DNA from: a virus
Reading direction: 5' to 3' (one strand)
IMG/VR virus record: IMGVR_UViG_3300004770_000016
Location: 1 to 54,292 of that record
DNA: 54,292 bases
Below the pieces are notes generated by a model. The model saw only the letters and a list, made by a program, of their open reading frames with translations, had not been told where the DNA came from and ran no database searches. Position 1 is the stretch's first letter, and every line of letters starts with the position of its first letter. Both the position numbers and the translations under genes were made by a program. Below, one piece after another: positions 1,838 through 13,646 of the stretch.

Positions 1838-2071
1838 ATGAATTGGAACTTGGAAGGTTTGATTGTGCGTGGTCGCTATCTTGGACAGCATCCGGTGCAG
1901 GGTCACGTGGTGTTGTCACGCACCAAGTACGGAAGTGGCATTGATCATCATGTGGTGTTGGATCATCCACTGGATCTTTTTGGCAGCTGCCGCGATCGAG
2001 TGGTGCTAGCCCATCATCACGTGGATCAGGTGTTGCAGAATCACTCCAAGGAGTGGGTACGTCATGGATAA
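1838..2071 (+). CDS. Conserved phage ORFan (MNWNLEGxxVxGxYLG family)
   Basis: 77 residues: MNWNLEGLIVRGRYLGQHPV at the start, then VVLDHPLDLFGSCRDRVVLAHHH. I recall the same two motifs in other phage proteins. The pattern suggests a small beta-barrel, but no function is known. It is the first gene after its own sigma70 promoter, with a CGGAG ribosome site. It overlaps the next gene by 8 nt. Confidence 0.75.
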   Translation: MNWNLEGLIVRGRYLGQHPVQGHVVLSRTKYGSGIDHHVVLDHPLDLFGSCRDRVVLAHHHVDQVLQNHSKEWVRHG

Positions 2072-2267
2072 AGATCAACAAATCAAACAGCTTCGCGAAT
2101 CACAAATGGTGCTGTATCTCGAAAATGCCACACTCAAAAGCCGTTGCCACGAGATGGAAGAGCGTATCGCTCACTTGGCCCAGGCCTTGGATATTGCCAT
2201 CCAAGCACTAGAAACTGCCAAGGCCACTTTTGAACAGGCCTTGCAGGCCGCTGATCAATCTAGATAA
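2064..2267 (+). CDS. Small coiled-coil protein
   Basis: 67 residues, almost entirely heptad-like helix: MDKDQQIKQLRESQMVLYLE, then NATLKSRCHEMEERIAHLAQ and an Ala-rich end. A soluble coiled coil is the only structural inference possible. The start overlaps the previous gene, with AGGAG in AAGGAGTGGGTACGTC upstream. It is the last plus-strand gene of the left cluster. Confidence 0.65.
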   Translation: MDKDQQIKQLRESQMVLYLENATLKSRCHEMEERIAHLAQALDIAIQALETAKATFEQALQAADQSR

Positions 2268-2287
2268 AAGCTCACTTTAAACGTTCT

Positions 2288-2347
2288 GGTAGCGAATCAG
2301 TCAGTTAAGCCAGCAGCCGGCTACATAACCTTATAACGGTCCTAAGG
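2288..2347. other. Intergenic segment carrying two blocks identical to 23S rRNA helix 69
   Basis: Between convergent genes lie GGTAGCGAA (2288-2296) and TATAACGGTCCTAAGG (2332-2347). Both strings are adjacent, in the opposite order, in the near-universal helix 69 region of bacterial 23S rRNA, which is also the I-CeuI recognition site. Here they are separated by about 35 bp. The identity is visible by eye; the reason for it is not. Confidence 0.6.
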
Positions 2348-2365
2348 CATGTTCTTTGATGTTTG

Positions 2366-3091
2366 TCAGCAGTGCCATTTTCTCAATGATTTATTGATAC
2401 GACTGTTGGGATCATGAGCTGTCTTGGCTGATGTGCGATGTTTTTTCATGCCCTTCATGCGAGCGCAAAAACTCTTGCGTCGTTTGGAGGCCTTGCTGCC
2501 TTTCTTGAGCTTGCCGGGCTTGGTAGTGACCGCGGTCTGCAATTTGCTGCCGGGATGTTGTCTGCGGTAGCTGGCCACGCCCTTCTTGTTGAGCCCGCCG
2601 TTTTTGTTCTTGCCAGATTTCTTTTGCCATGCCGCAGCTTCATCCAGATGACTGCCTTCACGTGGGGCGAACGCAACATCTGCCACGTCTGCGATTCGTA
2701 TGTGTTTCAGACCAGTGGTTCCGTGAGATCTAGCAGCCCAGTATCCTTGATTGTGCAGATGCTGCATCACATAGTAGAGAAATTTGGGATCAATTTTGTC
2801 ACCGGCAGTGACCTTGACGCCCATGTATTGAGGCTGATATTGTGTGACTGGTCGGCCCACCTGTTGTTGGCTGCCTTTGCGTATGATCCAAAAGTCCGCA
2901 TTGGGCATGTGCGTGGCCACCAAAGCCAAATCACGCAGGTACATGCCCGACGATTCCTTGACACTGCGATTGGGCACACAGTTATTGACTCGCACGCCGC
3001 CCTTGATCTTGGTGCCCTGTTTGTGCATGCCTGACCAGCACTTGGCATCCAATCTGGTTTTAACCTCACCCACGAATTCTTGAGCTCTCAT
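2366..3091 (-). CDS. Fusion of an HsdS-like recognition domain and a basic DUF6321-like tail, with a capsid-leader-like N-terminus
   Basis: 241 residues. The N-terminus MRAQEFVGEV resembles the T4 capsid-targeting leader, with a VGE site. Residues ~40-145 read like one half of a type I restriction specificity subunit: VTAGDKIDPKFLYYVMQHLH, then a conserved TTGLKHIRIADV. The C-terminal ~80 residues are Lys/Arg-rich and match DUF6321 as I remember it (TTKPGKLKKGSKASKRRKSF, ARMKGMKK, DPNSRINKSLRKW). It may be a DNA-binding protein packaged with the genome. The start overlaps the upstream stop as ATGA. Confidence 0.65.
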   Translation of the reverse strand: MRAQEFVGEVKTRLDAKCWSGMHKQGTKIKGGVRVNNCVPNRSVKESSGMYLRDLALVATHMPNADFWIIRKGSQQQVGRPVTQYQPQYMGVKVTAGDKIDPKFLYYVMQHLHNQGYWAARSHGTTGLKHIRIADVADVAFAPREGSHLDEAAAWQKKSGKNKNGGLNKKGVASYRRQHPGSKLQTAVTTKPGKLKKGSKASKRRKSFCARMKGMKKHRTSAKTAHDPNSRINKSLRKWHC

Positions 3092-3285
3092 TTTTTCTTT
3101 CCTCTGCGCATGTTGATCTGCCAGCGGGCCAATTGGCCTTTACGCCCCTTGCTCTTGGCTGCCTTGGTCAATTGAGCCAGGGTGGCATGTTTGGGGATAC
3201 CCGCACGAGCACTGTCGCCAGGACGACCCGGGCCTTTGCCATCTGCAAAGTTTTCAAACAAGGCCAACAGTTCGCGCAAAGTCAT
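3088..3285 (-). CDS. Small basic late protein with capsid-leader-like N-terminus
   Basis: 65 residues starting MTLRELLALFEN. The C-terminal part HATLAQLTKAAKSKGRKGQL and QINMRRGKKK is a basic phage module I recall, often found next to DUF6321 proteins. The start at 3285 is preferred over an upstream codon at 3315 because a late promoter box (GATAAATA) ends 5 nt before this ATG and no Shine-Dalgarno exists. LFE|N is a possible prohead protease site. It is coupled by ATGA to the HsdS-like gene. Confidence 0.7.
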   Translation of the reverse strand: MTLRELLALFENFADGKGPGRPGDSARAGIPKHATLAQLTKAAKSKGRKGQLARWQINMRRGKKK

Positions 3286-3290
3286 ACTGA

Positions 3291-3298
3291 TATTTATC
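3291..3298 (-). promoter_or_regulatory. Late promoter box, leaderless arrangement
   Basis: GATAAATA with 5 nt to the ATG at 3285. By T4 spacing (-13 to -6) the A of ATG is the transcription start. No Shine-Dalgarno. Confidence 0.6.
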
Positions 3299-3304
3299 AC
3301 TCTG

Positions 3305-4246
3305 TCACTGACCAAACTGAGTGGTGATCACACGACCATGCAGATCTTGTGCATGCAAGGGCAACTGTTCAATCACAAAGGTTCTCTGCAGCCATCGATC
3401 GTTGCCATCAAAGCGTGGCTGATAGGCACTGCGTCCATGCACTGCCCGCGCATTGTCAATGATCAAGAGATCGCCTGATGTGAGATTGATTTCACTGTGA
3501 CACTGAGCCACCGCACGGCCCAGTTCATGTAGGGCCTGATCAGCAGCAGGATCAGTGCCTACCATGAGATCCTCATCAAACACCATGACAGGATCATGGG
3601 GCGTGGTCAATACCGCCATGGGTGGGCCCAACTGATTGGCTCTGCCATTCAAGAAGCTTTGATCTATGGCCGTACGGAATCTGGGTTCAAACAAGATTCT
3701 CTGTGTGGCCCGGCTCAGGTGCGGCCACACCTGATTGATTGAGCACAGCGTGGTCATGGCTCGTTCATCTCCCCTCAAGCACAGCAGGGCCAGATAGGCC
3801 GGACGATAGGGATGAAAGGCCGTTTCGGTATGAAACATGAGTGGCACCAGACTGGATGTGCTGGTTTGGGCATGCTGATTGGCACGAGTTGGCACCAGAT
3901 TCTGCACCAAACGGCCGCCCAATTCAGGTTCATAGCCCACGGGTTCACCCAGCAGGCTGGCCACGGCCAACAGAGTGCGTTCGCTGATCAAATCTTTGCT
4001 AGTGGGCTCAGTGGGTGAGGAGGGAGTTCGCGGCACTGCTCCCACTGGCAAGCCTCGCATCAGCAGCGCACCACTGGGGTGGCTGTGCCTGCGAAACTGA
4101 GCCACTGCGTGAGTGATCTCAGCAGGCAGATGAGCACGCCAGTCCCGAGCCTGGGCCATGAACTGGGCGCTATCCAGTGGCTCCTGCAGGGGCAGCGGGC
4201 CTGGATCCGGTGCTGGGCACGTCAAGGTGAGGGGTGCTAGATGCAT
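3305..4246 (-). CDS. Fe(II)/2-oxoglutarate-dependent oxygenase of the AsnO/VioC (clavaminate synthase-like) type
   Basis: 313 residues. Iron ligands are visible as H139-T-E141 (MFHTETAFHPYRP) and distal H270 (AVHGRSAY). R284 and R288 in DGNDRWLQRTFV sit 14 and 18 residues after the distal His, where AsnO and VioC place their 2-oxoglutarate arginines. In known members the reaction is beta- or gamma-hydroxylation of a free amino acid (Arg, Asn) or a related substrate; the substrate here is unknown. Length is slightly below the family's ~330-360. It is transcribed from a late box with a normal leader and AAGGA site. A phage copy is unusual and suggests host-metabolite or surface modification. 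Confidence 0.85.
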   Translation of the reverse strand: MHLAPLTLTCPAPDPGPLPLQEPLDSAQFMAQARDWRAHLPAEITHAVAQFRRHSHPSGALLMRGLPVGAVPRTPSSPTEPTSKDLISERTLLAVASLLGEPVGYEPELGGRLVQNLVPTRANQHAQTSTSSLVPLMFHTETAFHPYRPAYLALLCLRGDERAMTTLCSINQVWPHLSRATQRILFEPRFRTAIDQSFLNGRANQLGPPMAVLTTPHDPVMVFDEDLMVGTDPAADQALHELGRAVAQCHSEINLTSGDLLIIDNARAVHGRSAYQPRFDGNDRWLQRTFVIEQLPLHAQDLHGRVITTQFGQ

Positions 4247-4270
4247 GAGCGGGTCCTTTCATGTGTGAGA

Positions 4271-4278
4271 TATTTATC
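4271..4278 (-). promoter_or_regulatory. Late promoter box with leader
   Basis: GATAAATA, 24 nt upstream of the ATG at 4246. The leader contains AAAGGA, in contrast to the leaderless late genes nearby. Confidence 0.5.
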
Positions 4279-4305
4279 GGCGATTAAATACACAATTGAA
4301 TCAAC

Positions 4306-4536
4306 ATGCGAACCACACTGAAAATATCACGCGAGCAGTATCAAGCTCTGTTTGTAGAGCAGGGATGGGATCCCATTTGGGATTGGGGACCCTTGAGCCG
4401 AAGCCAATTTATCCTGGAATCATTGCGCCGGGAGTTTGGCATCGCGGACTACAGATACCAGTATGACCTCAGCCTGATCGAATTTGACTTTGATCATGAG
4501 CAGCAGGCCACTTGGTTTGCGCTGAAATATCTATGA
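4306..4536 (+). CDS. Small ORFan, first of a tandem paralogous pair
   Basis: 76 residues: MRTTLKISREQYQALFVEQGW at the start, ending in QQATWFALKYL. The following gene has the same plan (short beta/alpha start, an FGI/YGI motif in the middle, ATWFAL[KR] near the end), so the two arose by tandem duplication. Function unknown; soluble. An ATTAAATA box lies 15 nt upstream, but no clear Shine-Dalgarno is present. The stop overlaps the next start (ATGA). It diverges from the oxygenase gene. Confidence 0.65.
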   Translation: MRTTLKISREQYQALFVEQGWDPIWDWGPLSRSQFILESLRREFGIADYRYQYDLSLIEFDFDHEQQATWFALKYL

Positions 4537-4763
4537 AACGCATACGGATCACAGTGGATGAATTCAATCAGTTGGTGGCTCGATATGACCAAACAGTGGC
4601 CGCACAAGAGCCCCTGCTGCAACCCGGGCTGTACACTCGCGGCCTGCTGGGGCACTATGGCATCAAGACGTTCAAATACCTGTCAGCTCTGGGCTTGGTT
4701 CGCTTGGAATTTGTGAGCGAGCCCGCTGCCACTTGGTTTGCGCTGCGACATGTTGGCTCGTGA
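4533..4763 (+). CDS. Small ORFan, second of a tandem paralogous pair
   Basis: 76 residues from the ATG that overlaps the previous stop: MKRIRITVDEFNQLVARYDQ, then GLLGHYGIKTFKYL and ATWFALRHVGS at the C-terminus. It is a diverged copy of the preceding gene. An earlier start at 4512 would lie inside that gene and is not supported. Function unknown. Confidence 0.65.
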   Translation: MKRIRITVDEFNQLVARYDQTVAAQEPLLQPGLYTRGLLGHYGIKTFKYLSALGLVRLEFVSEPAATWFALRHVGS

Positions 4764-4787
4764 TCAGCACATCAAAAATCTACACAC

Positions 4788-4795
4788 ATTAAATA
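4788..4795 (+). promoter_or_regulatory. Late promoter box, near-leaderless arrangement
   Basis: ATTAAATA with 8 nt to the ATG at 4804, predicting a 5' leader of about 3 nt. No Shine-Dalgarno. The box supports 4804 as the start of the methyltransferase. Confidence 0.55.
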
Positions 4796-4803
4796 AGTTC
4801 ACT

Positions 4804-5400
4804 ATGGATAAACACAGAATAATTCAAGAAATGCATGCTCTTCCGTCGGCCTGGACCGGACATTTGGAATTTGCTCAATGGCTGGTTGATCGTGTGCGAC
4901 CAACCACCACTGTGGATCTGGGTGTGGATTACGGGTTCAGCCTGTTTGCCTTGGCTCTTGGCGGTCAAGGCACTGTGTACGGTGTAGACAGTTTTGAGGG
5001 CGATATTCATGCTGGTTACCATCCTGATGCCTACCGTATGGTAAGCAATTTCCAACAGCGCCATGCCTTTGATCATGTGCAGTTGATACGGTCATGGTTC
5101 ACACCCTTGGCCCAAAAATGGCTGCTGCCAATTGACATACTGCACATCGACGGATTGCACACCTATTCGGCCATCACCGAGGATTGGCAAAATTGGTCAA
5201 AATTCGTGCCCGCCACTGGAGTGGTGATCATGCATGATGTGATCAGTTTCCCTGCCGATGTGGGTCGTTTTTACAATGAACTGCCTTTGCCCAAGGCCTA
5301 TTTTGAACACAGTGCCGGACTGGGCATCGTGACATGGAATGTGAGATTACTGGAGGACATCTTGAGAGCCTTTCCTCAGGCACGTGTGGGCCCTGTGTGA
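4804..5400 (+). CDS. Class I SAM-dependent methyltransferase (Methyltransf_24-like)
   Basis: 198 residues. Motif I is VDLGVDYGFS at 37-46; motif II begins VDSFEGD at 61. A characteristic IDILHIDGLHTYSAITEDW follows at 110-128, and an HD pair in VVIMHDVISFP. The DxxHIDGxHxY pattern is typical of the Methyltransf_24/TylF-like group, which often methylates sugars or small molecules; the substrate is not predictable. The start is chosen by the late box 8 nt upstream. With the oxygenase it suggests a small-molecule or glycan modification module. Confidence 0.75.
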   Translation: MDKHRIIQEMHALPSAWTGHLEFAQWLVDRVRPTTTVDLGVDYGFSLFALALGGQGTVYGVDSFEGDIHAGYHPDAYRMVSNFQQRHAFDHVQLIRSWFTPLAQKWLLPIDILHIDGLHTYSAITEDWQNWSKFVPATGVVIMHDVISFPADVGRFYNELPLPKAYFEHSAGLGIVTWNVRLLEDILRAFPQARVGPV

Positions 5401-5420
5401 TCCCCGGCCGGTGACGCGGC

Positions 5421-5428
5421 CATAAATA
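5421..5428 (+). promoter_or_regulatory. Late promoter box, near-leaderless arrangement
   Basis: CATAAATA with 7 nt to the ATG at 5436; predicted leader about 2 nt; no Shine-Dalgarno. Confidence 0.6.
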
Positions 5429-5435
5429 GTCACAT

Positions 5436-5891
5436 ATGCTGCTGCGTGAATTACTGGACCGTCCTTACCCTGTTGCCTTGGATGACCCCGACGCCGCCGA
5501 CGCGGCCTATCGAGCCGTTTGGATCTGGAGATTCACCACAGATCAGGGCGATCAAGGCGAAGTCACCATAACTCGCAGTTTGATGCACAGCCGGACTTCA
5601 GTGAAATACAGCATCAACGGCAGCCGGGATAGACCCAATCGAGATCAACTCCGTCCCAACAGCATGAGAATCTTCAGCTCGGTGTTGGCCGCTCTCAGAC
5701 ACTACTGGAGCCTCAACCCTGCCAATCAAACCCAGACCCTGGAATTTGTGGGCAGCCACAGCGATCCCAAAAGACTGGCGTTTTATGATCGCATGGCTCA
5801 GCAGCTGGGTCGGTGGATTCCCTACAGACTGGTGAGCACACAGGATCATCCAGACGATTACAAGAAGTATGTGTTGGCCCGGATCCGTTAG
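5436..5891 (+). CDS. Late phage protein with MLLREL leader; function unknown
   Basis: 151 residues. The first 12 (MLLRELLDRPYP) are nearly the same as those of the unrelated protein starting at 18886 (MLLREMFDRPRP). A beta-rich middle follows (EVTITRSLMHSRTSVKYSIN), then a C-terminal segment with SDPKRLAFYDRMAQQLGRW. I recall that arrangement in phage proteins, possibly GNAT-like, but no acetyl-CoA loop is visible. It is driven by a near-leaderless late promoter. The stop overlaps the end of the convergent nuclease gene by 4 nt. Confidence 0.65.
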   Translation: MLLRELLDRPYPVALDDPDAADAAYRAVWIWRFTTDQGDQGEVTITRSLMHSRTSVKYSINGSRDRPNRDQLRPNSMRIFSSVLAALRHYWSLNPANQTQTLEFVGSHSDPKRLAFYDRMAQQLGRWIPYRLVSTQDHPDDYKKYVLARIR

Positions 5892-7111
5892 GCAGCGGAG
5901 CCTGATTGTTTTTGTTGGGCATAGGCCTGCTTGAGTGCTTGCAGCACACGACGGATACAGTCCGGTCTAGTTTGCGTTTTCTGCCATTCATCCTCCCAAA
6001 TCACCACCAAGGTAAAGCCTTTCTGGCGCAGATATTCTTCTTTTTCTTGATTTAGTCGTCTACGTTCGCCTGCCGTTTTTCCAACTTTGGGTAACGGGGT
6101 GTTGTCGTCCTGGAATCGTAAGGGGTTGGCATGGTAAAGATCGCCATAATACTCCACGATCATGGGAGGATCTTCTATGAATAGATCGATTTTGTATGAA
6201 TCTCCGTGACGGCCGCCAGTGGGGATTGGTACAGAGTGTTGAGGGTTCAGCGGTTGAATTTCGGGTAGCTGTGAGATTGTTTCAAAAAAATGTATTTCAC
6301 CTTGACTGCGCTGATGTACTTTTTGATTTTTTTTATAGTCTTGATGTAAAAGATCATAATCTGGCAGGTTTTTTAGGTGTCTTCTAATAGTTCCACGATC
6401 TCGATCAATTCTTAAGCTGATATATCCAGGATTATAGCCCTGCTGATACAATTCGCGTATTTCATGATCTTGTTGCACAGTGAACGACCTTTTTTCTCGT
6501 TTTTGCCTAGCCTTAAACTGCCTATCGACAACAGCAGATACACTGGGTATTGATCTATTTTTCTCACGAGCGATCTTAGCGATGGACCAGTTATATTCGC
6601 CCTCGGGATCATAGTGACTTCGTATGAATTCTTCATCGTCGGGAGTGAACGACCTTTTTTCTTGTTTTTGCCTAGCCTTAAACTGCCTATCGACAACATC
6701 AGATACACTGGCCGCTAATCTATTTAACACACCAGCGATCTTAGCGATGGACCAGTTATATTCGCCCTCGGGATCATAGTGACTTCGTATAAATTCTTCA
6801 TCGTCGGGAGTGAACTCTTGATAGGGTCGTTTGAGTTCCTGATCAAGATAGCGATGGATCAGGACATAACTCTTTCCTAACTGTTTAGCAATGGCCGCTG
6901 CATTTAATCCCTGTTTGGCCAAGTGATTGATAAGAAAATAGTTCTTTATGGTTTGCTCGGTTGTACCAGCACCCAGTTGGTAATCGTGGATGAGATCTTG
7001 CAGTATGTGGTGATCACTGTGATGCTGAGCTCGCAGTTGGCGCATGCGTGCTCTCTGTTGAACAGTAAACCCTCGAAACGCTTCTTGAATGAATAATTCA
7101 CGTAATAGCAT
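5888..7111 (-). CDS. Vsr/PD-(D/E)xK-like endonuclease with tandem DNA-binding modules and capsid-leader-like N-terminus
   Basis: 407 residues. The leader is MLLRELFIQE|AF, with IQE as a possible prohead protease site. Helix-turn-helix-like modules follow, including two adjacent 55-residue repeats (100-154, 155-209) differing at few positions; FTVQQ opens modules at 15 and 210. The C-terminus has a nuclease core: GDSYKIDLF (D309), MIVEYYGDLYHANP (E320) and FTLVVIWEDEW (~367-377), the arrangement of Vsr-like and homing-type nucleases. A repeat DNA target and possible delivery in the virion are inferences. A late box lies 5 nt before the ATG. Confidence 0.75.
   Translation of the reverse strand: MLLRELFIQEAFRGFTVQQRARMRQLRAQHHSDHHILQDLIHDYQLGAGTTEQTIKNYFLINHLAKQGLNAAAIAKQLGKSYVLIHRYLDQELKRPYQEFTPDDEEFIRSHYDPEGEYNWSIAKIAGVLNRLAASVSDVVDRQFKARQKQEKRSFTPDDEEFIRSHYDPEGEYNWSIAKIAREKNRSIPSVSAVVDRQFKARQKREKRSFTVQQDHEIRELYQQGYNPGYISLRIDRDRGTIRRHLKNLPDYDLLHQDYKKNQKVHQRSQGEIHFFETISQLPEIQPLNPQHSVPIPTGGRHGDSYKIDLFIEDPPMIVEYYGDLYHANPLRFQDDNTPLPKVGKTAGERRRLNQEKEEYLRQKGFTLVVIWEDEWQKTQTRPDCIRRVLQALKQAYAQQKQSGSAA
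6485..6814 (-). repeat. Tandem 165-bp direct repeat within the nuclease gene
   Basis: Two abutting 165-bp units (6650-6814 and 6485-6649) encode 55-residue modules, each beginning FTPDDEEFIRSHYDPEGEYN. Most differences cluster in the middle (GVLNRLAAS versus REKNRSIPS), which is probably the recognition helix. The flanks are almost identical, so the duplication is recent. Confidence 0.9.
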
Positions 7112-7116
7112 GTGGT

Positions 7117-7124
7117 TATTTATT
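7117..7124 (-). promoter_or_regulatory. Late promoter box, leaderless arrangement
   Basis: AATAAATA with 5 nt to the ATG at 7111. T4 spacing puts +1 on the A of ATG. No Shine-Dalgarno. Confidence 0.6.
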
Positions 7125-7216
7125 AGCGATCACGTGGTGAGTGTGCAGTGCACGGACTGCTAGTGATACACACACGAACCGGTCGCCGGATCGCGCACGG
7201 AGCCGGTGGAAGGCGG

Positions 7217-7241
7217 CTCAAATACCCCGCTGTACGTGATG
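7217..7241 (+). repeat. Dispersed repeat A, copy 1 (CAAATACCCCGCT)
   Basis: CTCAAATACCCCGCTGTACG followed by TGATG and a CACACA run. It shares about 24 bp with copy 2. Confidence 0.85.
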
Positions 7242-7277
7242 CGCACACACGCATACACACGCGCACACACGCACAAA
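7241..7277. repeat. Imperfect (CA)n array 1
   Basis: Alternating CA/CG dinucleotides (GCGCACACACGCATACACAC and on). This is alternating purine-pyrimidine sequence able to adopt Z-DNA and prone to slippage. Confidence 0.8.
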
Positions 7278-7660
7278 CCCGCAGAGATTGAGTGTGTGCC
7301 GGTGGAGGAAACACTGCCCGTGACCAGAGTCCGTGACCCGTGACCCGTGATCGCGATTCCGGAGCAAGAAAGAATGGTCCAGAACCGGTCAAGAAGCGGT
7401 TGGCACCATTTAAACTATGCCTCACTTCCTTCACCTTGTCACGGGGTTTCTAGCCCAGATTCCCTGCCGCTTGAACTTCAGACCGTGACAGAAACCTGGA
7501 ATAAAACCCCACCAAACCGTGAGGATTTTGGGCCAAAACGGTGGGGGTTTGAGACATTTCCCCACACTTTTTGAGGAATTTTGATCCATCTCAGTGTGGG
7601 GCTACCCTAGCACAGGATCCCACTACAACCACAGCCACCGGCTGGATCACAGTGGGGTTG

Positions 7661-7684
7661 TCAAATACCCCGCTGTACGTGATG
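7661..7684 (+). repeat. Dispersed repeat A, copy 2 (CAAATACCCCGCT)
   Basis: Preceded by CAGTGGGG, which can pair with CCCCGCTG (one G-T wobble) to form a hairpin with a TTGTCAAATA loop. Confidence 0.85.
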
Positions 7685-7790
7685 TGCACACACGTACATA
7701 TACACACACTAGCGCACACACACGTACATATACACACACGCACACACACGTACATGTATACACACACGCACACACGAGCACATGCACACC
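7685..7790. repeat. Imperfect (CA)n array 2
   Basis: About 105 bp of CACACA interspersed with repeated CACGTACATATACACACAC units. It appears to be an expanded version of the CA-rich leaders found before most genes of this island. Confidence 0.85.
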
Positions 7791-7921
7791 GGAAGCGTTT
7801 GATCCCGGAGCATGGGCACTGTGACCTGGCGCCGTGAGTGAGCTGACATGGATATGAGCACACACACATCGAATGGACACGGCGGCATCGGGGCACATCG
7901 AGGACTGGGCGGCGCAGGTGG

Positions 7922-7950
7922 TTGACACCTGTGGGGCAGTTGCATACACT
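7922..7950 (+). promoter_or_regulatory. Sigma70-type promoter for the gene at 7986
   Basis: TTGACA, 17 bp, TACACT, followed by a CACACAC leader and AGGAG. Confidence 0.7.
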
Positions 7951-7985
7951 AGCGGCTCACTAACACACACAGGAGAACACACACC

Positions 7986-8336
7986 ATGCCCAAGACAGCG
8001 GCTTCGCGCCACCTCACTGACCAGGAGATCGCAACCATCGCGAACCAAGCCCTGGCCGCGGCTCAGGAGGCCACCCAGAATTTTCTCGACGCCAACGGTG
8101 ATCGTGATCTGTGTGGATTTGCTTGGGTCACCCTCCGGCCTGCCACCACGCGCATGGCACGCTGGCTCCGGCAGCAGGGCGTGGCTCGGCCTGCACCGGG
8201 AGGCGGGGTACAGGTGTGGAATCCGGGTGGTCACCCTACCCAGTGCATCACGGCCCGGGAACAAGGCGCACGGGCCTTTGTCAAGGTCATGGAGCAACAC
8301 GGCATCCGGGCCCTGGCCAACAGTCGATTGGACTAG
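7986..8336 (+). CDS. Island ORFan, 116 aa
   Basis: 116 residues, soluble, no family recognised. A helical N-terminal half (HLTDQEIATIANQALAAAQE) is followed by FAWVTLRPATTRMARWLRQQ, a Gly-rich turn (PAPGGGVQVWNPGG) and a last helix with GARAFVKVMEQHGI. A structure-binding or enzyme-regulatory role is possible but not shown. It is the first gene of the island, with its own promoter, a CACACA leader and AGGAG 10 nt before the ATG. A run of nine T follows its stop, which may terminate transcription. Confidence 0.7.
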   Translation: MPKTAASRHLTDQEIATIANQALAAAQEATQNFLDANGDRDLCGFAWVTLRPATTRMARWLRQQGVARPAPGGGVQVWNPGGHPTQCITAREQGARAFVKVMEQHGIRALANSRLD

Positions 8337-8362
8337 CAGGCGATTTTTTTTTGAAAACGGGC

Positions 8363-8390
8363 TAGACAACGAGCCTGCATCGTGTATAAT
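8363..8390 (+). promoter_or_regulatory. Sigma70-type promoter for the gene at 8439
   Basis: TAGACA, 16 bp, TATAAT. An AACGTTGA palindromic segment follows the -10. Confidence 0.65.
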
Positions 8391-8438
8391 GTTCAACGTT
8401 GAGCAAGAGATGTTTTTTAACCAGCAAGGAGATTGAAC

Positions 8439-8678
8439 GTGGCCAAAGCCATTCCAGTTGATGTGACTTTTCCTGAGTCGGGCGAGACCCGCACTTTCCG
8501 CAGCATCCGTGCTGTGGCGCGCATGTTGAGCGGAACGGGCACTGAGTCGGGCGGTTTCCGCAAGACCATCAGTGCTCGTGCTGCCAACGGCTTTGTGTTG
8601 GCCCAGCCCGATGTGGTGCGCCATAACCGCTTGGCAGATGCCTGGGTGGCAGACCCAGGCTTGGAGCGAGTGGCCTAA
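8439..8678 (+). CDS. Island paralogous protein (SGETRTFRS/AVARMLSGTGT family), copy 1
   Basis: 79 residues. GTG is chosen as the start because AAGGAG lies 7 nt upstream; the in-frame TTG at 8433 would be too close. The core VTFPESGETRTFRSIRAVAR continues into MLSGTGTESGG, and the gene at 13443 shares nearly all of it, so the two are paralogues within one island. The layout (short strand, helix AVARMLSGTG, basic end) looks like a small DNA-binding or MocR-like fragment, but no family is recognised. Confidence 0.75.
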   Translation: MAKAIPVDVTFPESGETRTFRSIRAVARMLSGTGTESGGFRKTISARAANGFVLAQPDVVRHNRLADAWVADPGLERVA

Positions 8679-8684
8679 AGGCTC

Positions 8685-8714
8685 AGGGCAGCTGACCACC
8701 GGGTCAGCTGCCCT
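8685..8714 (+). terminator. Hairpin terminator after the gene at 8439
   Basis: A perfect 13-bp stem AGGGCAGCTGACC/GGTCAGCTGCCCT with an ACCG loop. The next promoter's TTGACA begins at the last stem base, so terminator and promoter are fused; no U-tract follows. Confidence 0.65.
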
Positions 8715-8742
8715 TGACACTCGTGAACGCACACCGTATAAT
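8714..8742 (+). promoter_or_regulatory. Consensus sigma70 promoter for the AAA+ ATPase gene
   Basis: TTGACA, 17 bp, TATAAT: a perfect match to consensus, followed by a CACACACA leader and AAGGAAG. Confidence 0.85.
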
Positions 8743-8781
8743 CACCCGTGAACCGGCAAGCACACACACAAGGAAGCCCAA

Positions 8782-9633
8782 ATGGCACGAGAAACCAACG
8801 TGATTGAACTGGATCCAGAAGCCGTGGCAGCGCGGGCTGCTGCTGTGGCCCAGGAGACCGACGATGAGATCCTGGCACGCTTGAACGAGCGATTCCAGAT
8901 CCTGGAAGACATGACCCTGGCAGTCAAGCGTGGATCGGTACGCAGCATGATCGTATCAGGTCCACCCGGCACGGGCAAGAGCCACGGCGTGGAACAGGTG
9001 CTCAGCCGCGACGACCTATTCAACACCCTGGCCCAGCGGCGGCCCAAGTACGAGATCGTGAAAGGAGCCACCAGTAGTGTGGGCCTGTATGCCAAACTGT
9101 TTGAGTATGCGGCTCCGGGCCATGTGCTGGTGTTTGACGACTGCGACACCATACTCATGGAAGAAGAAAGCCTCAACACCCTGAAAGGCGCCCTGGACTC
9201 GGGTGAACGGCGCTACATTTCGTGGAACAAGGACAGCCGCCTGCTGCGCACACAGGGCGTGCCGGACCGTTTTGAGTTCTCGGGTTCAGTGATCTTTATC
9301 ACCAACATCAAGTTTGACTTTGTGCGCAGCAAGAAACTGCGAGACCACTTGATGGCCCTGGAGTCGCGCAGCCACTACATTGATCTGCAGATGGACACCA
9401 CGCGAGAAAAGATCCTGCGCATACGCCAGATCGTGGCCCAAGGCATGCTGTCTCGCTATCTGTTTGAACAGGATCAAGAAGCCCAGATCATTGACTTCAT
9501 AGTGGAGCATCAGGAGCGACTGAGCGAGCTGAGCCTGCGCATGGTGCTGAAAATCGCGGATCTGCGCCGTGAGTTTCCAGACACTTGGCGCAACATGGCT
9601 CGCACCACCTGCATGAGCCGGCAGCGCCCGTGA
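8782..9633 (+). CDS. Phage AAA+ ATPase
   Basis: 283 residues. Walker A is GPPGTGKS at 60-67, Walker B VLVFDDCD at 115-122 and a sensor-1-like IFITN at 171-175. A helical C-terminal lid contains LSLRMVLKIADLRREFPDTW. A short charged N-terminus precedes the ATPase core. Such single-domain AAA+ proteins occur in many phages with undefined roles (remodelling or DNA handling). It has the best promoter of the island. A membrane-protein gene overlaps its stop (GTGA), so the two are translationally coupled and may act together at the membrane. Confidence 0.85.
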   Translation: MARETNVIELDPEAVAARAAAVAQETDDEILARLNERFQILEDMTLAVKRGSVRSMIVSGPPGTGKSHGVEQVLSRDDLFNTLAQRRPKYEIVKGATSSVGLYAKLFEYAAPGHVLVFDDCDTILMEEESLNTLKGALDSGERRYISWNKDSRLLRTQGVPDRFEFSGSVIFITNIKFDFVRSKKLRDHLMALESRSHYIDLQMDTTREKILRIRQIVAQGMLSRYLFEQDQEAQIIDFIVEHQERLSELSLRMVLKIADLRREFPDTWRNMARTTCMSRQRP

Positions 9634-9854
9634 CGGCCAGGTGGGCCTGGGCCCTGGCCCACTGGGCCATTTGGATGGCAGCTGCGGGCCTGGCCCACCT
9701 GGAAGGCCTGCCCTGGCCGCATGTGGCGGCCTGGGCCCTGCTGCTGCTGTGCCAGGAGTGGAACACGCGCCTCGTGTGGGAACACGAGGTGATGCAGGTG
9801 CTGGCGCGCGTCCGGCACCTGGTGGAGCAGGCGCGGGCCCCACCACACACGTGA
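9630..9854 (+). CDS. Small two-pass membrane protein coupled to the AAA+ ATPase
   Basis: 74 residues from a GTG that overlaps the ATPase stop (GTGA). Two Trp/Ala/Leu-rich helices at about 4-20 (RWAWALAHWAIWMAAAGLAH) and 30-42 (HVAAWALLLLCQEW) precede a soluble helical tail. The in-frame ATG at 9585 would lie deep inside the ATPase gene and is not favoured. No family recognised. The coupled arrangement suggests an ATPase-membrane partner pair; a hole-forming function is not shown. Confidence 0.65.
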   Translation: MTARWAWALAHWAIWMAAAGLAHLEGLPWPHVAAWALLLLCQEWNTRLVWEHEVMQVLARVRHLVEQARAPPHT

Positions 9855-9868
9855 ACAGCTCTCCAGCT

Positions 9869-9894
9869 CGCAGTGGGGCTGGCCGCGGCCCACT
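9869..9894 (+). terminator. Hairpin between the membrane gene and the next promoter
   Basis: GCAGTGGGGC pairs imperfectly with GCCCACTGGC around TGGCCGCG. It contains CAGTGGGG, the same word present in repeat-A hairpins. No T-run follows. Confidence 0.4.
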
Positions 9895-9906
9895 GGCAGG
9901 TGCGGC

Positions 9907-9934
9907 TTGACTTAGAGCTGTTTTCTGTTATAAT
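9907..9934 (+). promoter_or_regulatory. Sigma70-type promoter for the gene at 9965
   Basis: TTGACT, 16 bp, TATAAT, then a long CACACACATTCACACACA leader and AAGGAG. Confidence 0.85.
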
Positions 9935-9964
9935 ACACACACATTCACACACAAGGAGACTGCC

Positions 9965-10261
9965 ATGACCCTTTACAGCTATGCCGGAGTCAGCCGCCGC
10001 CAAGGACGCATGCGACCGCGTTGGGCCAACGATCAAGCTCGCATCCGGACCCTGATCCGCACCGGACACACGGACATTGATCTCATACCGTTGCCCAAGG
10101 CCATGACACGCACAGAGGCCCTGACCTGGCTGATCTCGATTGACTTTGACAACGGCAATCCGGAAGTGCGCGAGGCCCTGGAGGCCGCACTGGATCGACG
10201 CCAGACCCAAGAACCGGCCGAGGCTCAGGGCGTGGAGCCGGCCCAGGAGCCGGCCCACTGA
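9965..10261 (+). CDS. Island ORFan, 98 aa
   Basis: 98 residues, not recognised. A basic N-terminal third (SRRQGRMRPRWANDQARIRT) is followed by a conserved-looking core with DIDLIPLPKAMTRTEALTWL and an acidic, Pro/Glu-rich, probably disordered tail containing two PAQEPAH-like repeats. It has a strong promoter, a CA-rich leader and AAGGAG 8 nt before the ATG. A GC-rich hairpin follows directly. Confidence 0.7.
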   Translation: MTLYSYAGVSRRQGRMRPRWANDQARIRTLIRTGHTDIDLIPLPKAMTRTEALTWLISIDFDNGNPEVREALEAALDRRQTQEPAEAQGVEPAQEPAH

Positions 10262-10273
10262 CCCACCCGGTAC

Positions 10274-10299
10274 CGCACAGCCCGGTCGCGGGCTGTGCG
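10274..10299 (+). terminator. Hairpin between the genes at 9965 and 10321
   Basis: CGCACAGCCC pairs perfectly with GGGCTGTGCG around GGTCGC; ACTTTTGC follows. It ends only 12 nt before the next AAGGAG, so it may attenuate or stabilise instead of fully terminating; no separate promoter for the next gene is evident. Confidence 0.6.
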
Positions 10300-10320
10300 A
10301 ACTTTTGCAAGGAGCATACT

Positions 10321-10542
10321 ATGGGAATTTTGACCACATTTGGCAGGCCCTACGTGGAGTTTGATCCGGGCCAGCGCAGCCACCGCGAGTGGTTGCATCA
10401 GTTCCTGGCCACGGCCAGCTGGGGCCACTGTCCGGTGCGTTTTACCGTGAATCAAGAAGGTGAGCACTTGGCCGTGATACAGCGACGCCTGTTGGAATGG
10501 TACATGGACCGCGAGTTTGCGCGCCGTGGTGCCACAGGCTAG
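10321..10542 (+). CDS. Island ORFan, 73 aa
   Basis: 73 residues: MGILTTFGRPYVEFDPGQRS, a WLHQFLATASWGHCPVRF segment and a helical end (LLEWYMDREFARRG). Not recognised. CPVRFxVNQEGEHLAVI could form a short beta sheet. AAGGAG sits 8 nt before the ATG. It lies downstream of a hairpin and probably shares the transcript of the gene at 9965. Confidence 0.65.
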   Translation: MGILTTFGRPYVEFDPGQRSHREWLHQFLATASWGHCPVRFTVNQEGEHLAVIQRRLLEWYMDREFARRGATG

Positions 10543-10601
10543 CGGCGGACTGCCGGCCGGCCTCGGCCCTGGTACTCTCACACACACAGCAAGGAGCACA
10601 C

Positions 10602-10940
10602 ATGATACAGCCCAACTCACAGTTCCGTTATTGGCGAGCCGACCAAGTGGCCGAGTGCCTGGATGGCATTCCCGACAGCCTGTATCAACGCCTTTGGCAC
10701 ATCACCCAGCCTGAGCCTGTGACGCCAGGCCTGGATTATGGCGAAACGCCACCGGACAGTTGGGATCACTGCCTGGCCGCCCAGGGCTGGAGTCTGCTGA
10801 CTGAGGATCAGCAACGCCTGCTCAATCAGCTCATGGAGCAGTATCACGCTGCGCTGGGCTGGACCCAGGCTCAGCAGGATCGGGACATCCTGGACCAGAT
10901 CGACCACTTCAACTGGGTGGGCAGCCGGCACCACTATTGA
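10602..10940 (+). CDS. Island ORFan, 112 aa
   Basis: 112 residues. The start is the ATG preceded by a CACACACACAGCAAGGAGCA leader, not the upstream in-frame start at 10497, which would overlap the previous gene. Helical, acidic, Trp/Gln-rich: SQFRYWRADQVAECLDGIPD, then WDHCLAAQGWSLLTEDQQRL and a tail with HFNWVGSRHHY. No family recognised. No clear -35 element is visible before it, only a weak TACTCT at the -10 position. Confidence 0.65.
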   Translation: MIQPNSQFRYWRADQVAECLDGIPDSLYQRLWHITQPEPVTPGLDYGETPPDSWDHCLAAQGWSLLTEDQQRLLNQLMEQYHAALGWTQAQQDRDILDQIDHFNWVGSRHHY

Positions 10941-10942
10941 GG

Positions 10943-10971
10943 TTGACGGCGATCCGGCCCTAGTGTACATT
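10943..10971 (+). promoter_or_regulatory. Sigma70-type promoter for the 18-aa ORF and tRNA-Lys
   Basis: TTGACG, 17 bp, TACATT, preceded by GAGG as in several other island promoters and followed by a CACACAGACACACACG leader. Confidence 0.65.
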
Positions 10972-11006
10972 GCACACACAGACACACACGCTGCAAGGAG
11001 ACCCAC

Positions 11007-11063
11007 ATGCACACTTGGCCCTCGGATCAGGCGCTCGAGGCCTATCTGCCAGAACACGCTTAA
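11007..11063 (+). CDS. 18-residue ORF upstream of tRNA-Lys
   Basis: ATG to TAA encodes MHTWPSDQALEAYLPEHA. AAGGAG lies 8 nt upstream and a promoter precedes it, exactly as for the longer island genes. It ends 9 nt before the tRNA. It may be a real micropeptide or a translated leader that influences tRNA processing; it contains no Lys codon. Confidence 0.5.
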   Translation: MHTWPSDQALEAYLPEHA

Positions 11064-11072
11064 CACACCAAT

Positions 11073-11147
11073 GGGATCGTAGCTCAGAGGTAGAGCAATC
11101 GGCTTTTAACCGATTGGTCGAGAGTTCGAATCTCTCCGGTCCTACCA
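11073..11147 (+). tRNA. tRNA-Lys (anticodon UUU)
   Basis: A 75-nt cloverleaf. Acceptor GGGATCG/CGGTCCT (with G-T wobbles), D-stem GCTC/GAGC, anticodon stem ATCGG/CCGAT with loop CTTTTAA (anticodon TTT at 11105-11107), T-stem GAGAG/CTCTC with TTCGAAT, discriminator A and an encoded CCA. It is the only tRNA seen. Lys AAA is common in the AT-rich late genes, so the tRNA could support them on a more GC-rich host. Confidence 0.95.
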
Positions 11148-11181
11148 AATCACCACGTCCAAACAACGCAGGAAGACCAAA

Positions 11182-11610
11182 ATGGCCTACATGAATCAAG
11201 AAAGAAAAGCACAGGTTGCACCACTGGTCAAGGCCGTGTTAACACGCTACGGCGTGAAGGGGTCGCTGTCGGTTCGCAACCATATGACACTGTGCCTTAA
11301 CATCAAGGCGGGCACGATTGATTTCATTGACAATTTCATCAGCACGGATCAGGCACGGGGTCATGCCCATCCAATGACAGCCGAAACCATCCAGCGCCTC
11401 CGCAACGAGCAGAGCCTAGACGTTAACCCGTACTGGTTCCATGAGCACTTTTCAGATCGCGCTAGAGCATTCCTAAGCGATGTGATGACTGCGCTAAAGG
11501 GTGCGGGTTGGTACGACAAATCGGATGCGCACACGGACCACTTTGACACCGCTTACTATATTAGCATAAGCATTGGTGACTGGAAAAAGCCTTACCAGCT
11601 GATCGCGTAA
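11182..11610 (+). CDS. LPD29-like phage protein
   Basis: 142 residues. The start MAYMNQERKAQVAPLVKAVL, the GVKGSLSVRNHMTLCLNI segment and the VNPYWFHEHFSD motif match a family I recall as large-polyvalent-protein-associated domain 29 (LPD29), found alone in phages and fused in large mobile-element proteins. Function unknown. A typical C-terminus DTAYYISISIGDWKKPYQL is present, so it appears complete. CAGGAAG precedes the ATG; no promoter is visible between it and the tRNA, so it is probably co-transcribed. Confidence 0.85.
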   Translation: MAYMNQERKAQVAPLVKAVLTRYGVKGSLSVRNHMTLCLNIKAGTIDFIDNFISTDQARGHAHPMTAETIQRLRNEQSLDVNPYWFHEHFSDRARAFLSDVMTALKGAGWYDKSDAHTDHFDTAYYISISIGDWKKPYQLIA

Positions 11611-11639
11611 GTGACTGAATCTTGAGGCAAAACTGGTGC

Positions 11640-11668
11640 TTGACTATTCCATCACCAGAGACTATAAT
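11640..11668 (+). promoter_or_regulatory. Orphan sigma70-type promoter
   Basis: TTGACT, 17 bp, TATAAT. No ORF with a ribosome site begins within 200 bp downstream. This could drive a small RNA of about 210 nt ending near the repeat A hairpin. Confidence 0.6.
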
Positions 11669-11860
11669 GATCGCATATTGGCACGTGAGGGCGTCACCCT
11701 CTATTCTGGTCCGGAAGATGAGAAGCCCGTGACAGGGCAGGACCTTACCATTTGGTGCAAATGGCCTTGGCAACAGGACAGTCTTCCCAGGTCGAGAAGC
11801 GGGTGGAAGGTGGCAACACTACAATTACCGCCGCTGGGAAGAAGCTATTAGGAAAAAACC

Positions 11861-11884
11861 TCAAATACCCCGCTGTGTGGGGTT
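11861..11884 (+). repeat. Dispersed repeat A, copy 3
   Basis: TCAAATACCCCGCTGTGTGG followed by GGTTGAC. ACCCC/GGGGT pair around GCTGTGT, and the next promoter's -35 starts inside the stem. Confidence 0.85.
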
Positions 11885-11911
11885 GACAATGCCCACACAG
11901 CGTGGTACAAT
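11883..11911 (+). promoter_or_regulatory. Sigma70-type promoter for the gene pair at 11980
   Basis: TTGACA, 17 bp, TACAAT, directly abutting repeat A copy 3. The leader contains CTAGCCCAGAGGAGAGCCCTAG, a possible hairpin. Confidence 0.75.
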
Positions 11912-11979
11912 GCTGTTATCAAATCTAGCCCAGAGGAGAGCCCTAGATTATAACTAGTTGTAGTCAGGGAGAAAACACC

Positions 11980-12261
11980 ATGTATCTTGATGAAAGCACT
12001 GTGGAAAAAATGCGTGAGCAGTTGGCGCACAGAGACGAGATCATGACCGATGCACTGCGCAAGCGCGACGCGCACCGGCTCATGGCCCAGGAGTATCGAG
12101 ATCAGCTGGGTCAAGCACGGGTGCAGATCTCACAGCTGGAGGCACAGATGCAATCCCAGGCCGCGCAGCTGGATCAGCTGCGCACAGACAATCGGGATTT
12201 GGAAGCGTTCAATCGCATGCTGCAGAAGATGATACGACGTATGGCTCACAAGGACAAATAA
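11980..12261 (+). CDS. Island coiled-coil protein, 93 aa
   Basis: 93 residues, helical throughout with heptads from about residue 30 to the end (QISQLEAQMQSQAAQLDQLR, then DNRDLEAFNRMLQKMIRRM). Not recognised. GGGAG lies 10 nt before the ATG. The next gene starts 3 nt after the stop and is also a coiled coil, so the two may form a hetero-oligomer. Confidence 0.7.
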   Translation: MYLDESTVEKMREQLAHRDEIMTDALRKRDAHRLMAQEYRDQLGQARVQISQLEAQMQSQAAQLDQLRTDNRDLEAFNRMLQKMIRRMAHKDK

Positions 12262-12263
12262 AC

Positions 12264-12485
12264 ATGGTCAAGCGAACAAAGATTTTACACGAAGAACTGG
12301 AGTATGTGACCGCGCAACGCAACTGGACACTGGCACAAAAAAACTTTCGCCAGCTCAAACGCCGAGAGGGTGTCACGGACGAAGATCTAGCCCTGGCCAA
12401 ACAGCGCCTGGAAGTGTTCAAGTCCCGAGCACAGGAAACCAGCGCAGCGTTGACTCGCGCGGGGCTCAACAAGGGTTCTATCTAG
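12264..12485 (+). CDS. Island coiled-coil protein, 73 aa
   Basis: 73 residues, basic and helical: MVKRTKILHEELEYVTAQRN, then LAQKNFRQLKRREGVTDEDL and RLEVFKSRAQETSAALTRAG. The upstream gene's end supplies AAGGAC as the ribosome site. Not recognised. It is co-transcribed with the previous coiled-coil gene. Confidence 0.65.
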   Translation: MVKRTKILHEELEYVTAQRNWTLAQKNFRQLKRREGVTDEDLALAKQRLEVFKSRAQETSAALTRAGLNKGSI

Positions 12486-12500
12486 CCACAGGACACACAC

Positions 12501-12668
12501 ATGATTACTAACACGTTCATGACACACGCACCCTTTGTGATCGCTGTGCTGTGTGGGATCACAGCCATCCTGGCCCTGGTGCAGGGCCACTCAGACGCAG
12601 CCGGAGCTTGGCTGTTGGCCTTTGCGGGATGGCTCACGGTGCACGTGGAGCGCTTGACACAGCACTAG
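12501..12668 (+). CDS. Small two-pass membrane protein, 55 aa
   Basis: 55 residues in a clean frame. Two hydrophobic helices lie at about 11-27 (PFVIAVLCGITAILALV) and 34-48 (AGAWLLAFAGWLTVHV). The leader is ACAGGACACACAC before the ATG, a weak ribosome site. The 3' codons double as the -35 element (TTGACA) of the next promoter. No family recognised; a membrane-acting early protein is possible. Confidence 0.55.
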   Translation: MITNTFMTHAPFVIAVLCGITAILALVQGHSDAAGAWLLAFAGWLTVHVERLTQH

Positions 12669-12681
12669 ATCCTGTTATAAT
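12654..12681 (+). promoter_or_regulatory. Sigma70-type promoter for the gene at 12707
   Basis: TTGACA, 16 bp, TATAAT, overlapping the end of the upstream ORF; a CACTCACAGTCACACACGGAG leader follows. Confidence 0.8.
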
Positions 12682-12706
12682 GCACTCACAGTCACACACG
12701 GAGAGC

Positions 12707-12874
12707 ATGATGGACCCGGCCAACTACCTGGAAAAGAATCGCACTCGCAGCCGCAATCCAGTGGCGCGACATGCCAATCAGTTCAATCGCCCAAGCACGC
12801 ACCCTAGCAAGCAGGATCGTGCTCGCCAGCGCCGACCCAAGTATGGGTTCCAGTTTGATCGGGAGCTGGTATGA
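12707..12874 (+). CDS. Small very basic protein, 55 aa
   Basis: 55 residues (or 54 from the next codon, also ATG): MMDPANYLEKNRTRSRNPVA, then Arg/Lys/Asn/Pro-rich sequence (NRPSTHPSKQDRARQRRPKY). Probably disordered and nucleic-acid binding. CGGAG lies 6-9 nt upstream. The stop overlaps the next start as ATGA. Not recognised. Confidence 0.65.
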   Translation: MMDPANYLEKNRTRSRNPVARHANQFNRPSTHPSKQDRARQRRPKYGFQFDRELV

Positions 12875-13134
12875 CACGCGGTGTGCCCGTGCTGTGGCTG
12901 CCCACTGTGGCCTTGGCGGTGCTCATGATCCTGTTGGGTGTGAACCTGGTCAGCCACGTGGCCATGGCCTCTGCTGCTGTGCCCAGCACCATCTCATGCT
13001 ACTCGGGCGGTCACGAGATCTATCGAGGGCGGGGTATACAAGTGGAACGCTTGGAGAACAGCTATGTGTACTTTCAAGAAGTGGGCACAGGGCGTGACAT
13101 TTCCATACGTGCCGACTGCATGATCACCAAATAA
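12871..13134 (+). CDS. Secreted or membrane-anchored small protein
   Basis: 87 residues. An N-terminal signal or anchor (VLWLPTVALAVLMILLGVNL at ~8-27, then VAMASAA) is followed by a small beta-rich exported domain with C43 (STISCYSGG) and C82 (IRADCMITK), which could form a disulphide. AVASAA-like residues before P38 fit a signal peptidase site (MASAA|VP). Coupled to the basic protein by ATGA. It may act in the periplasm, for example in superinfection exclusion, but this is only a topology-based guess. Confidence 0.7.
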   Translation: MTRGVPVLWLPTVALAVLMILLGVNLVSHVAMASAAVPSTISCYSGGHEIYRGRGIQVERLENSYVYFQEVGTGRDISIRADCMITK

Positions 13135-13138
13135 ATGG

Positions 13139-13166
13139 TTGACACAGCCCATAAGGGTTGTATACT
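13139..13166 (+). promoter_or_regulatory. Sigma70-type promoter with a palindromic -10 region
   Basis: TTGACA, 16 bp, TATACT. GTTGTA-TAC-TACAAC (13157-13171) is a perfect inverted repeat centred on the -10 box, a likely operator. Confidence 0.75.
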
Positions 13167-13205
13167 ACAACAGTTGACAAGGCATTTACCAAGGAGCCAA
13201 TCGCA

Positions 13206-13379
13206 ATGCCACGTTTTATCAGCGACGAACATCTGATGGAAGACATCTTCACGCAGACCAATCCTATTGTGAAGTCGGACTTTTTTGATGACGCCAACCA
13301 GTTTGATGATTGGGAGGAGGATTGGGAAGAGGACAGTGAGCAGACCTGGGCTCACATGGACGCAAACGACCAGGATTGA
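13206..13379 (+). CDS. Small highly acidic protein, 57 aa
   Basis: 57 residues from the ATG following AAGGAG; the earlier in-frame codon at 13158 lies upstream of the predicted transcription start. The acidic C-terminal half (DDWEEDWEEDSEQTWAHMDA) is strongly negative, like DNA-mimic or enzyme-inhibitor phage proteins, though no homologue is recognised. Its own promoter carries a palindromic -10. A second acidic protein of similar composition is at 14587. Confidence 0.7.
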   Translation: MPRFISDEHLMEDIFTQTNPIVKSDFFDDANQFDDWEEDWEEDSEQTWAHMDANDQD

Positions 13380-13381
13380 GG

Positions 13382-13410
13382 TTGACACAGCCTGTGCACG
13401 AACATATACT
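13382..13410 (+). promoter_or_regulatory. Sigma70-type promoter with operator for the gene at 13443
   Basis: TTGACA, 17 bp, TATACT. Perfect 10-bp arms AGCCTGTGCA (13389-13398) and TGCACAGGCT (13410-13419) bracket the -10 box. Confidence 0.8.
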
Positions 13411-13442
13411 GCACAGGCTATTTACACACTAGGGAGAACAGT

Positions 13443-13640: not shown

Positions 13641-13646
13641 GGCACA

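What the first reader, a model, noticed from the sequence alone, without database searches (positions are those of the whole stretch)
3305..4246. Phage-encoded AsnO/VioC-type amino-acid oxygenase
HTE...H plus Arg at +14 and +18 of the distal His, within DGNDRWLQRTF, is the active-site layout of bacterial L-Asn and L-Arg beta-hydroxylases used in peptide-antibiotic pathways. It is unusual in a T4-like phage. With a late promoter it should act at the end of infection or on virion components.
Basis: partly seen in the sequence, partly recalled or inferred. Interest (0 to 1): 0.65.

Follow-up and report, generated by a model that had tools for sequence, protein, structure and literature searches.

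The report
Phage-borne lysine-type amino-acid hydroxylase
A giant T4-like lake virus carries an intact, late-expressed enzyme that most likely puts a hydroxyl group on carbon 3 of free L-lysine or a similar basic amino acid; the gene came from a lake bacterium, and compact cousins sit in hundreds of other virus contigs with no known role.

Summary
The ORF is real and intact (313 aa, minus strand, 4246-3305), with the stated HTE...H triad and Arg at +14/+18. It belongs to the clavaminate-synthase-like (CSL) group of Fe(II)/2OG oxygenases, not to sulfonate TauD. The best solved relative by sequence, profile and predicted fold is KDO1, an L-lysine 3-hydroxylase. All eleven compared pocket residues match KDO1 and are invariant in 55 homologs; AsnO lacks the acidic pair. 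Best reading: C3-hydroxylase of a free basic amino acid, lysine favoured. The window gene nests inside a lake-proteobacterial clade (100/99) whose four members have a divergent Lrp/AsnC regulator. Acidimicrobial relatives sit beside an L-threonine-aldolase-like gene (12 of 21 loci), implying a hydroxylate-then-cleave route. It is accessory: about 320-kb relatives of this jumbo phage lack it. A late promoter of the type before the tail-sheath gene precedes it. A separate compact clade (single origin, dN/dS 0.05-0.12) occurs in other phages, probably of freshwater actinobacteria; 249 viral contigs matched in all. Its role in infection is unknown; "acts on virion components" is not supported, because the pocket fits free amino acids.

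The parts
3305..4246 (-). CDS of the 313-aa CSL-type Fe(II)/2OG oxygenase (P0001)
4271..4278 (-). late-promoter element GATAAATA, 32 nt upstream of the start codon
   Evidence: 12 of 48 listed genes have NATAAATA within 70 nt upstream (0.45 expected), tail sheath included
4254..4260 (-). ribosome-binding site GAAAGGA, 7 nt before the ATG
   Evidence: read from the sequence
3923..3925 (-). codon of E108 (P2, contact of the substrate alpha-amino group; Glu in KDO1 and AsnO, Gln in VioC)
   Evidence: position meaning from PMC6224419
3860..3862 (-). codon of S129 (KDO1 S168)
3824..3832 (-). codons of H139-T-E141, iron ligands (KDO1 H178, E180)
3752..3754 (-). codon of T165 (KDO1 T204, 2OG contact)
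3656..3664 (-). codons of D195 and S197 (P12 and P14; KDO1 D234 and S236)
3569..3577 (-). codons of D224 (P15, KDO1 D268) and D226 (P16)
3437..3439 (-). codon of H270, distal iron ligand (KDO1 H314)
3383..3397 (-). codons of R284 and R288 (2OG and substrate carboxylate; KDO1 R328 and R332)
3088..3285 (-). next gene downstream, 65 aa, unknown, with its own GATAAATA at 3298-3291; read as 75 aa from TTG 3315 it overlaps the oxygenase gene
   Evidence: no Pfam or PHROG match
2366..3091 (-). third gene of the same-strand run, typical large-phage protein (phrog_727, DUF6321); anchors the oxygenase in a phage operon

Best explanation
[quoted passage not shown] H139, E141 and H270 hold the iron, R284 and T165 hold 2OG, R288 and E108 hold the substrate carboxyl and amino groups, and the D195/D224 pair with S129 and S197 holds the charged side chain. 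The gene was acquired from lake proteobacteria by a jumbo T4-like phage as accessory cargo and is read from a late promoter. Shown: fold, family, pocket identity with KDO1, ancestry, motif placement. Inferred: the substrate and carbon 3. Guessed: the benefit to the phage, perhaps diverting host lysine so that host threonine aldolase releases glycine and 4-aminobutanal late in infection.
For: KDO1 is the best relative by phmmer (3e-50), family profile (2e-69) and predicted fold (Foldseek rank 1, E 2e-30, TM 0.86). All 11 compared KDO1 pocket residues are present and invariant in 55 homologs. [quoted passage not shown] P0001 has Leu at P3. Four of four proteobacterial orthologs have a divergent Lrp/AsnC regulator. 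An aldolase of the threonine-aldolase/GntG type sits beside 12 of 21 bacterial loci; such aldolases cleave 3-hydroxy amino acids, which fits C3 hydroxylation. The window nests in the proteobacterial clade at 100/99. Late motif. Phage copies of the compact clade evolve at dN/dS 0.05-0.12.
Against: No enzyme assay exists here for any member of this clade. Identity to KDO1 is about 33-36%, and pocket identity cannot separate lysine from ornithine, arginine or a cyclic arginine; NCBIfam ranks GntD (enduracididine) first, below its cut-off. The lid region is variable. No phage record tested carries an aldolase above the family cut-off, so the cleavage step in infection would need the host. dN/dS could not be measured for the window gene itself (dS saturated). 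The window is about one sixth of the genome of its ~320-kb relatives, so partner genes may be missing.
Confidence: 0.72

Rival explanations
1. VioC/GntD-like: the substrate is free L-arginine or a cyclic arginine, hydroxylated at C3, perhaps towards a guanidino metabolite.
For: GntD is the top NCBIfam profile and VioC the third. D226 at P16 matches the extra Asp that VioC uses for guanidinium.
Against: P2 is Glu as in KDO1, not Gln as in VioC. VioC ranks below KDO1, AsnO and CAS in the PDB by sequence. P16 is not conserved in the compact phage clade. KDO1 also has Asp there.
Confidence: 0.2
2. AsnO-like as first read: C3-hydroxylase of L-asparagine.
For: AsnO is the second-best solved relative (2e-43; Foldseek rank 3); both have Glu at P2 and the DG.DRWLQRTFV motif.
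Against: AsnO has Pro at P12 and Asn at the S129 position, while P0001 has the DXXD pocket for a positive side chain.
Confidence: 0.05
3. The product serves a glycan or surface modification: hydroxy amino acid attached to, or made for, a phage-directed sugar structure.
For: Methyltransferase genes lie near the gene in the window (PF13578) and in DSL-LC01, and an epimerase in L002. Several actinophage groups have genes read by eye as glycosyltransferases downstream, plus Pfam-confirmed methyltransferases.
Against: Other phage groups have RNR, DNA-metabolism or ParB-like neighbours instead; no partner is constant, and the window methyltransferase has no relative in the viral collection at this sensitivity.
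Confidence: 0.15
4. The product disturbs the host as a lysine analogue (LysRS or lysine sensing), or the enzyme matters mainly by consuming 2OG.
For: No constant partner gene; a tRNA-Lys gene lies in the window.
Against: Related phages carry 13-32 tRNA genes, so one tRNA-Lys is not special; late timing is late for host poisoning.
Confidence: 0.1

Closest known systems
KDO1 (K3H), L-lysine 3-hydroxylase of Catenulispora acidiphila, PDB 6f2a, CSL family IPR014503
   Same: Best hit by sequence, profile and fold; all 11 compared pocket residues identical
   Different: About 33-36% identity; shorter protein (313 versus 358 aa); phage-borne, late promoter; substrate not tested
AsnO, L-asparagine oxygenase, PDB 2og5-2og7
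   Same: Same fold, iron triad, Arg pair, Glu at P2, DGxDRWLQRTF motif
   Different: Lacks the P12 Asp and the S129-type Ser; pocket for an uncharged side chain
VioC, OrfP and CmnC arginine hydroxylases; GntD of guanitoxin biosynthesis
   Same: Same fold, DXXD acidic pocket and C3 chemistry; bacterial relatives also sit beside a GntG-like aldolase
   Different: Gln at P2 (VioC); lower similarity; profile scores well below equivalog cut-offs (209 versus 345 bits for GntD)
TauD/TfdA dioxygenase WJZ48424 of Actinomycetia phage DSL-LC01 (OQ999401; PMC10611076)
   Same: Phage CSL enzyme with the same pocket residues, 38% identical
   Different: Compact clade lacking the N-terminal helical part; next to VanY and methyltransferase genes; Phe at P16; the paper's main text does not discuss it

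Membership tests
Clavaminate-synthase-like (CSL) Fe(II)/2OG oxygenases | Double-stranded beta-helix fold of the CSL type | tested here: met
   AF2 pLDDT 92.2; Foldseek top hits all CSL, TM up to 0.86
Clavaminate-synthase-like (CSL) Fe(II)/2OG oxygenases | HxE/D...H triad with Arg at P18 and P19 | tested here: met
   H139, E141, H270, R284, R288; invariant in 55 homologs
KDO1-type L-lysine 3-hydroxylase | Pocket residues Glu P2, S168, T204, D234, S236, D268 of KDO1 | tested here: met
   E108, S129, T165, D195, S197, D224
KDO1-type L-lysine 3-hydroxylase | No Arg at P3, which is linked to C4 selectivity | tested here: met
   Leu109 at P3 (PMC6224419)
KDO1-type L-lysine 3-hydroxylase | Turnover of L-lysine at C3 | not testable with these tools
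   Needs an assay
AsnO-type asparagine hydroxylase | Pocket without Asp at P12 (PPSD motif at P12-P15) | tested here: not met
   P0001 has Asp195 at P12
VioC-type arginine hydroxylase | Gln at P2 and Asp at P12, P15 and P16 | tested here: inconclusive
   Asp at P12, P15, P16 but Glu at P2; TIGR03946 161.9 bits versus cut-off 418.6
GntD L-enduracididine hydroxylase | NCBIfam equivalog cut-off 345 bits | tested here: not met
   209.3 bits
TauD sulfonate dioxygenases | Closer match to TauD/TfdA proper than to CSL enzymes | tested here: not met
   Pfam TauD 9e-18 is a superfamily hit; no sulfonate TauD appears among PDB hits, where CSL enzymes score 2e-69 to 7e-24

The most novel reading that the evidence does not exclude
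Phages repeatedly and durably carry a free-lysine C3-hydroxylase to open a lysine-to-glycine shunt late in infection: 3-hydroxylysine is cleaved by host threonine aldolase to glycine (for purines) and 4-aminobutanal. Some bacteria encode both steps as one operon, a lysine breakdown route that I found no description of.
Probability: 0.15. Interest if true: 0.75.

Novelty: new member of a known kind. Interest (0 to 1): 0.5.

Why it matters
Free-amino-acid hydroxylases of this family are known from antibiotic and toxin pathways of bacteria. Here the same active site is under strong selection in many freshwater phages, in one old compact clade and in at least one later acquisition by jumbo T4-like phages, usually hidden under the name TauD. 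It gives a clear substrate test for an unexplained phage metabolic gene, and the aldolase pairing in bacteria suggests a breakdown route for basic amino acids.

Tried and rejected
Chimeric contig (GC 52-60% at 2-20 kb versus about 40% in the right arm): rejected, because ~320-kb relatives carry both the left-arm AAA gene (66-70%) and the right-arm terminase (77-82%) on opposite strands, as here, and late motifs occur in both arms. Link to the tRNA-Lys gene at 11073: not supported, since related jumbo phages have 13-32 tRNA genes. Constant partner gene in phages: none among 34 groups. Phage-encoded aldolase: none above cut-off in 20 records. Relatives of the neighbouring methyltransferase: none in viral contigs. 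Wider bacterial sampling added two loci: 2 of 198 genomes of one class and 4 of 296 of one order carry it, so it is rare there. Literature for phage or aldolase links: nothing direct. Searches failed on input rules.

Full report
Observation. The ORF 4246-3305 on the minus strand is intact, 313 aa, preceded by GAAAGGA and by GATAAATA at 4278-4271. The quoted motif is there: H139-T-E141, H270, R284 (+14) and R288 (+18) within DGNDRWLQRTF. Orthologs start at the same residue (MHAAPL, MHASPL).

Family. Pfam gives TauD (9e-18) as superfamily. NCBIfam gives GntD, clavaminate synthase and VioC, all below their equivalog cut-offs. PDB order by sequence is KDO1 L-lysine 3-hydroxylase (3e-50), AsnO (2e-43), clavaminate synthases, then VioC. 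A 36-row profile gives the same leader, KDO1 2e-69. AlphaFold2 on 35 window and locus sequences gives pLDDT 92.2 and pTM 0.91, with KDO1 as Foldseek rank 1 (TM 0.86). In the viral structure library the best match reaches TM 0.57, so that library seems to hold no CSL enzyme.

Pocket. The KDO1/KDO5 paper (PMC6224419) names the contact residues and states that a paired Asp (DXXD) marks enzymes for positively charged side chains. An Arg at P3, or P1 in one group, marks C4 hydroxylation. In an alignment of P0001, 54 homologs and four PDB sequences, E108, S129, H139, E141, T165, D195, S197, D224, H270, R284 and R288 are identical to KDO1 in every homolog. AsnO differs at S129 (Asn), T165 (Leu) and D195 (Pro); VioC differs at E108 (Gln). 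P3 is Leu. Hence a free basic amino acid hydroxylated at C3 is predicted, lysine favoured. Lysine against ornithine or arginine is not settled.

Relatives. One other viral contig has the long form (61%, L002). A scan with the three-member alignment returned 249 viral contigs, of which the best 80 were read. Apart from L004, which is L002 again, these encode a compact form, most often 252-268 aa, in 34 groups at 90% identity once phage DSL-LC01 is added. DSL-LC01 has a predicted actinobacterial host and its copy is annotated only as TauD/TfdA. Bacterial relatives are lake proteobacteria (63-68%) and Acidimicrobiia (about 50-58%). In the tree the compact phage clade is one group (100/98). The window and L002 lie inside the proteobacterial clade (100/99), which supports bacterium-to-phage transfer; whether one transfer or two is not resolved. 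Compact phage copies show dN/dS 0.05-0.12.

Bacterial context. Four of four proteobacterial orthologs have a divergent Lrp/AsnC regulator (PF01037). Twelve of 21 bacterial loci have an adjacent L-threonine-aldolase-like gene (PF01212 3e-48; PDB 5vye 1e-73; NCBIfam GntG-like, below cut-off). Eleven of these are immediately downstream on the same strand and one is divergent. These loci are syntenic within one lineage, so they are not twelve independent events. Hydroxylation at C3 followed by retro-aldol cleavage is also the logic of GntD/GntG in guanitoxin biosynthesis; GntG's retro-aldol step is stated in PMC10367076, the GntD step is from general knowledge and the NCBIfam title.

Phage context. 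The right arm is T4-like. It is 99.99% identical to a 15-kb contig of one metagenome, and its nearest large relatives are about 322-328 kb. Those relatives lack the hydroxylase but hold both arms of the window. So the gene is accessory and the contig is not chimeric. The downstream same-strand genes end in a phrog_727-type phage protein. NATAAATA occurs 16 times in the window, 12 of them within 70 nt upstream of a listed gene (0.45 expected), including sheath and oxygenase.

Function in infection. Neighbours differ between phage groups: methyltransferases and probable sugar-transfer genes in some, RNR or DNA genes in others. No phage record tested has an aldolase above cut-off. The enzyme therefore seems to work alone, its product being used by host enzymes or as such. 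The glycine shunt, a glycan use and a lysine-analogue effect all remain open.

Verdict. Observation confirmed; interpretation partly supported. The enzyme is a new member of a known family with a predicted lysine-type pocket, in a setting (phage cargo) that is not explained.

Noticed in passing
L087, L088, L089, L091-L094, L096, L099, L102, L103 (and L090, divergent): Conserved gene pair in Acidimicrobiia: CSL hydroxylase plus L-threonine-aldolase-like gene; in the loci read closely a divergent RpiR/SIS-type regulator lies upstream. A possible undescribed breakdown route for a basic amino acid.
   Followed up: partly
window 11073-11147 (+): Single tRNA gene in the window, tRNA-Lys (TTT).
   Followed up: partly
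window 7244-7283 and 7687-7789: CA-rich microsatellites (CACACACGCA type), unusual for a phage, on both sides of a weakly coding stretch.
   Followed up: no
window 2001-20000: GC 48-60% against mostly 30-45% elsewhere, and few convincing genes between about 10 and 19 kb.
   Followed up: partly
window 5888-7111 (-): 407-aa HTH protein with an internal 165-bp duplication (6479-6815, 93% matches) and a C-terminal homing-endonuclease-like part.
   Followed up: no
window 18031-18162: Perfect 58-bp tandem repeat, 2.3 copies.
   Followed up: no
window 5436, 7111 and about 18900: Several ORFs share an MLLREL/MLLREM N-terminus, possibly a targeting or processing signal such as that of packaged internal proteins.
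   Followed up: no
L002 2180-6646: The other phage with the long form has next to it genes that look by eye like QueE, QueD and FolE, i.e. a 7-deazaguanine pathway; not tested with profiles.
   Followed up: no
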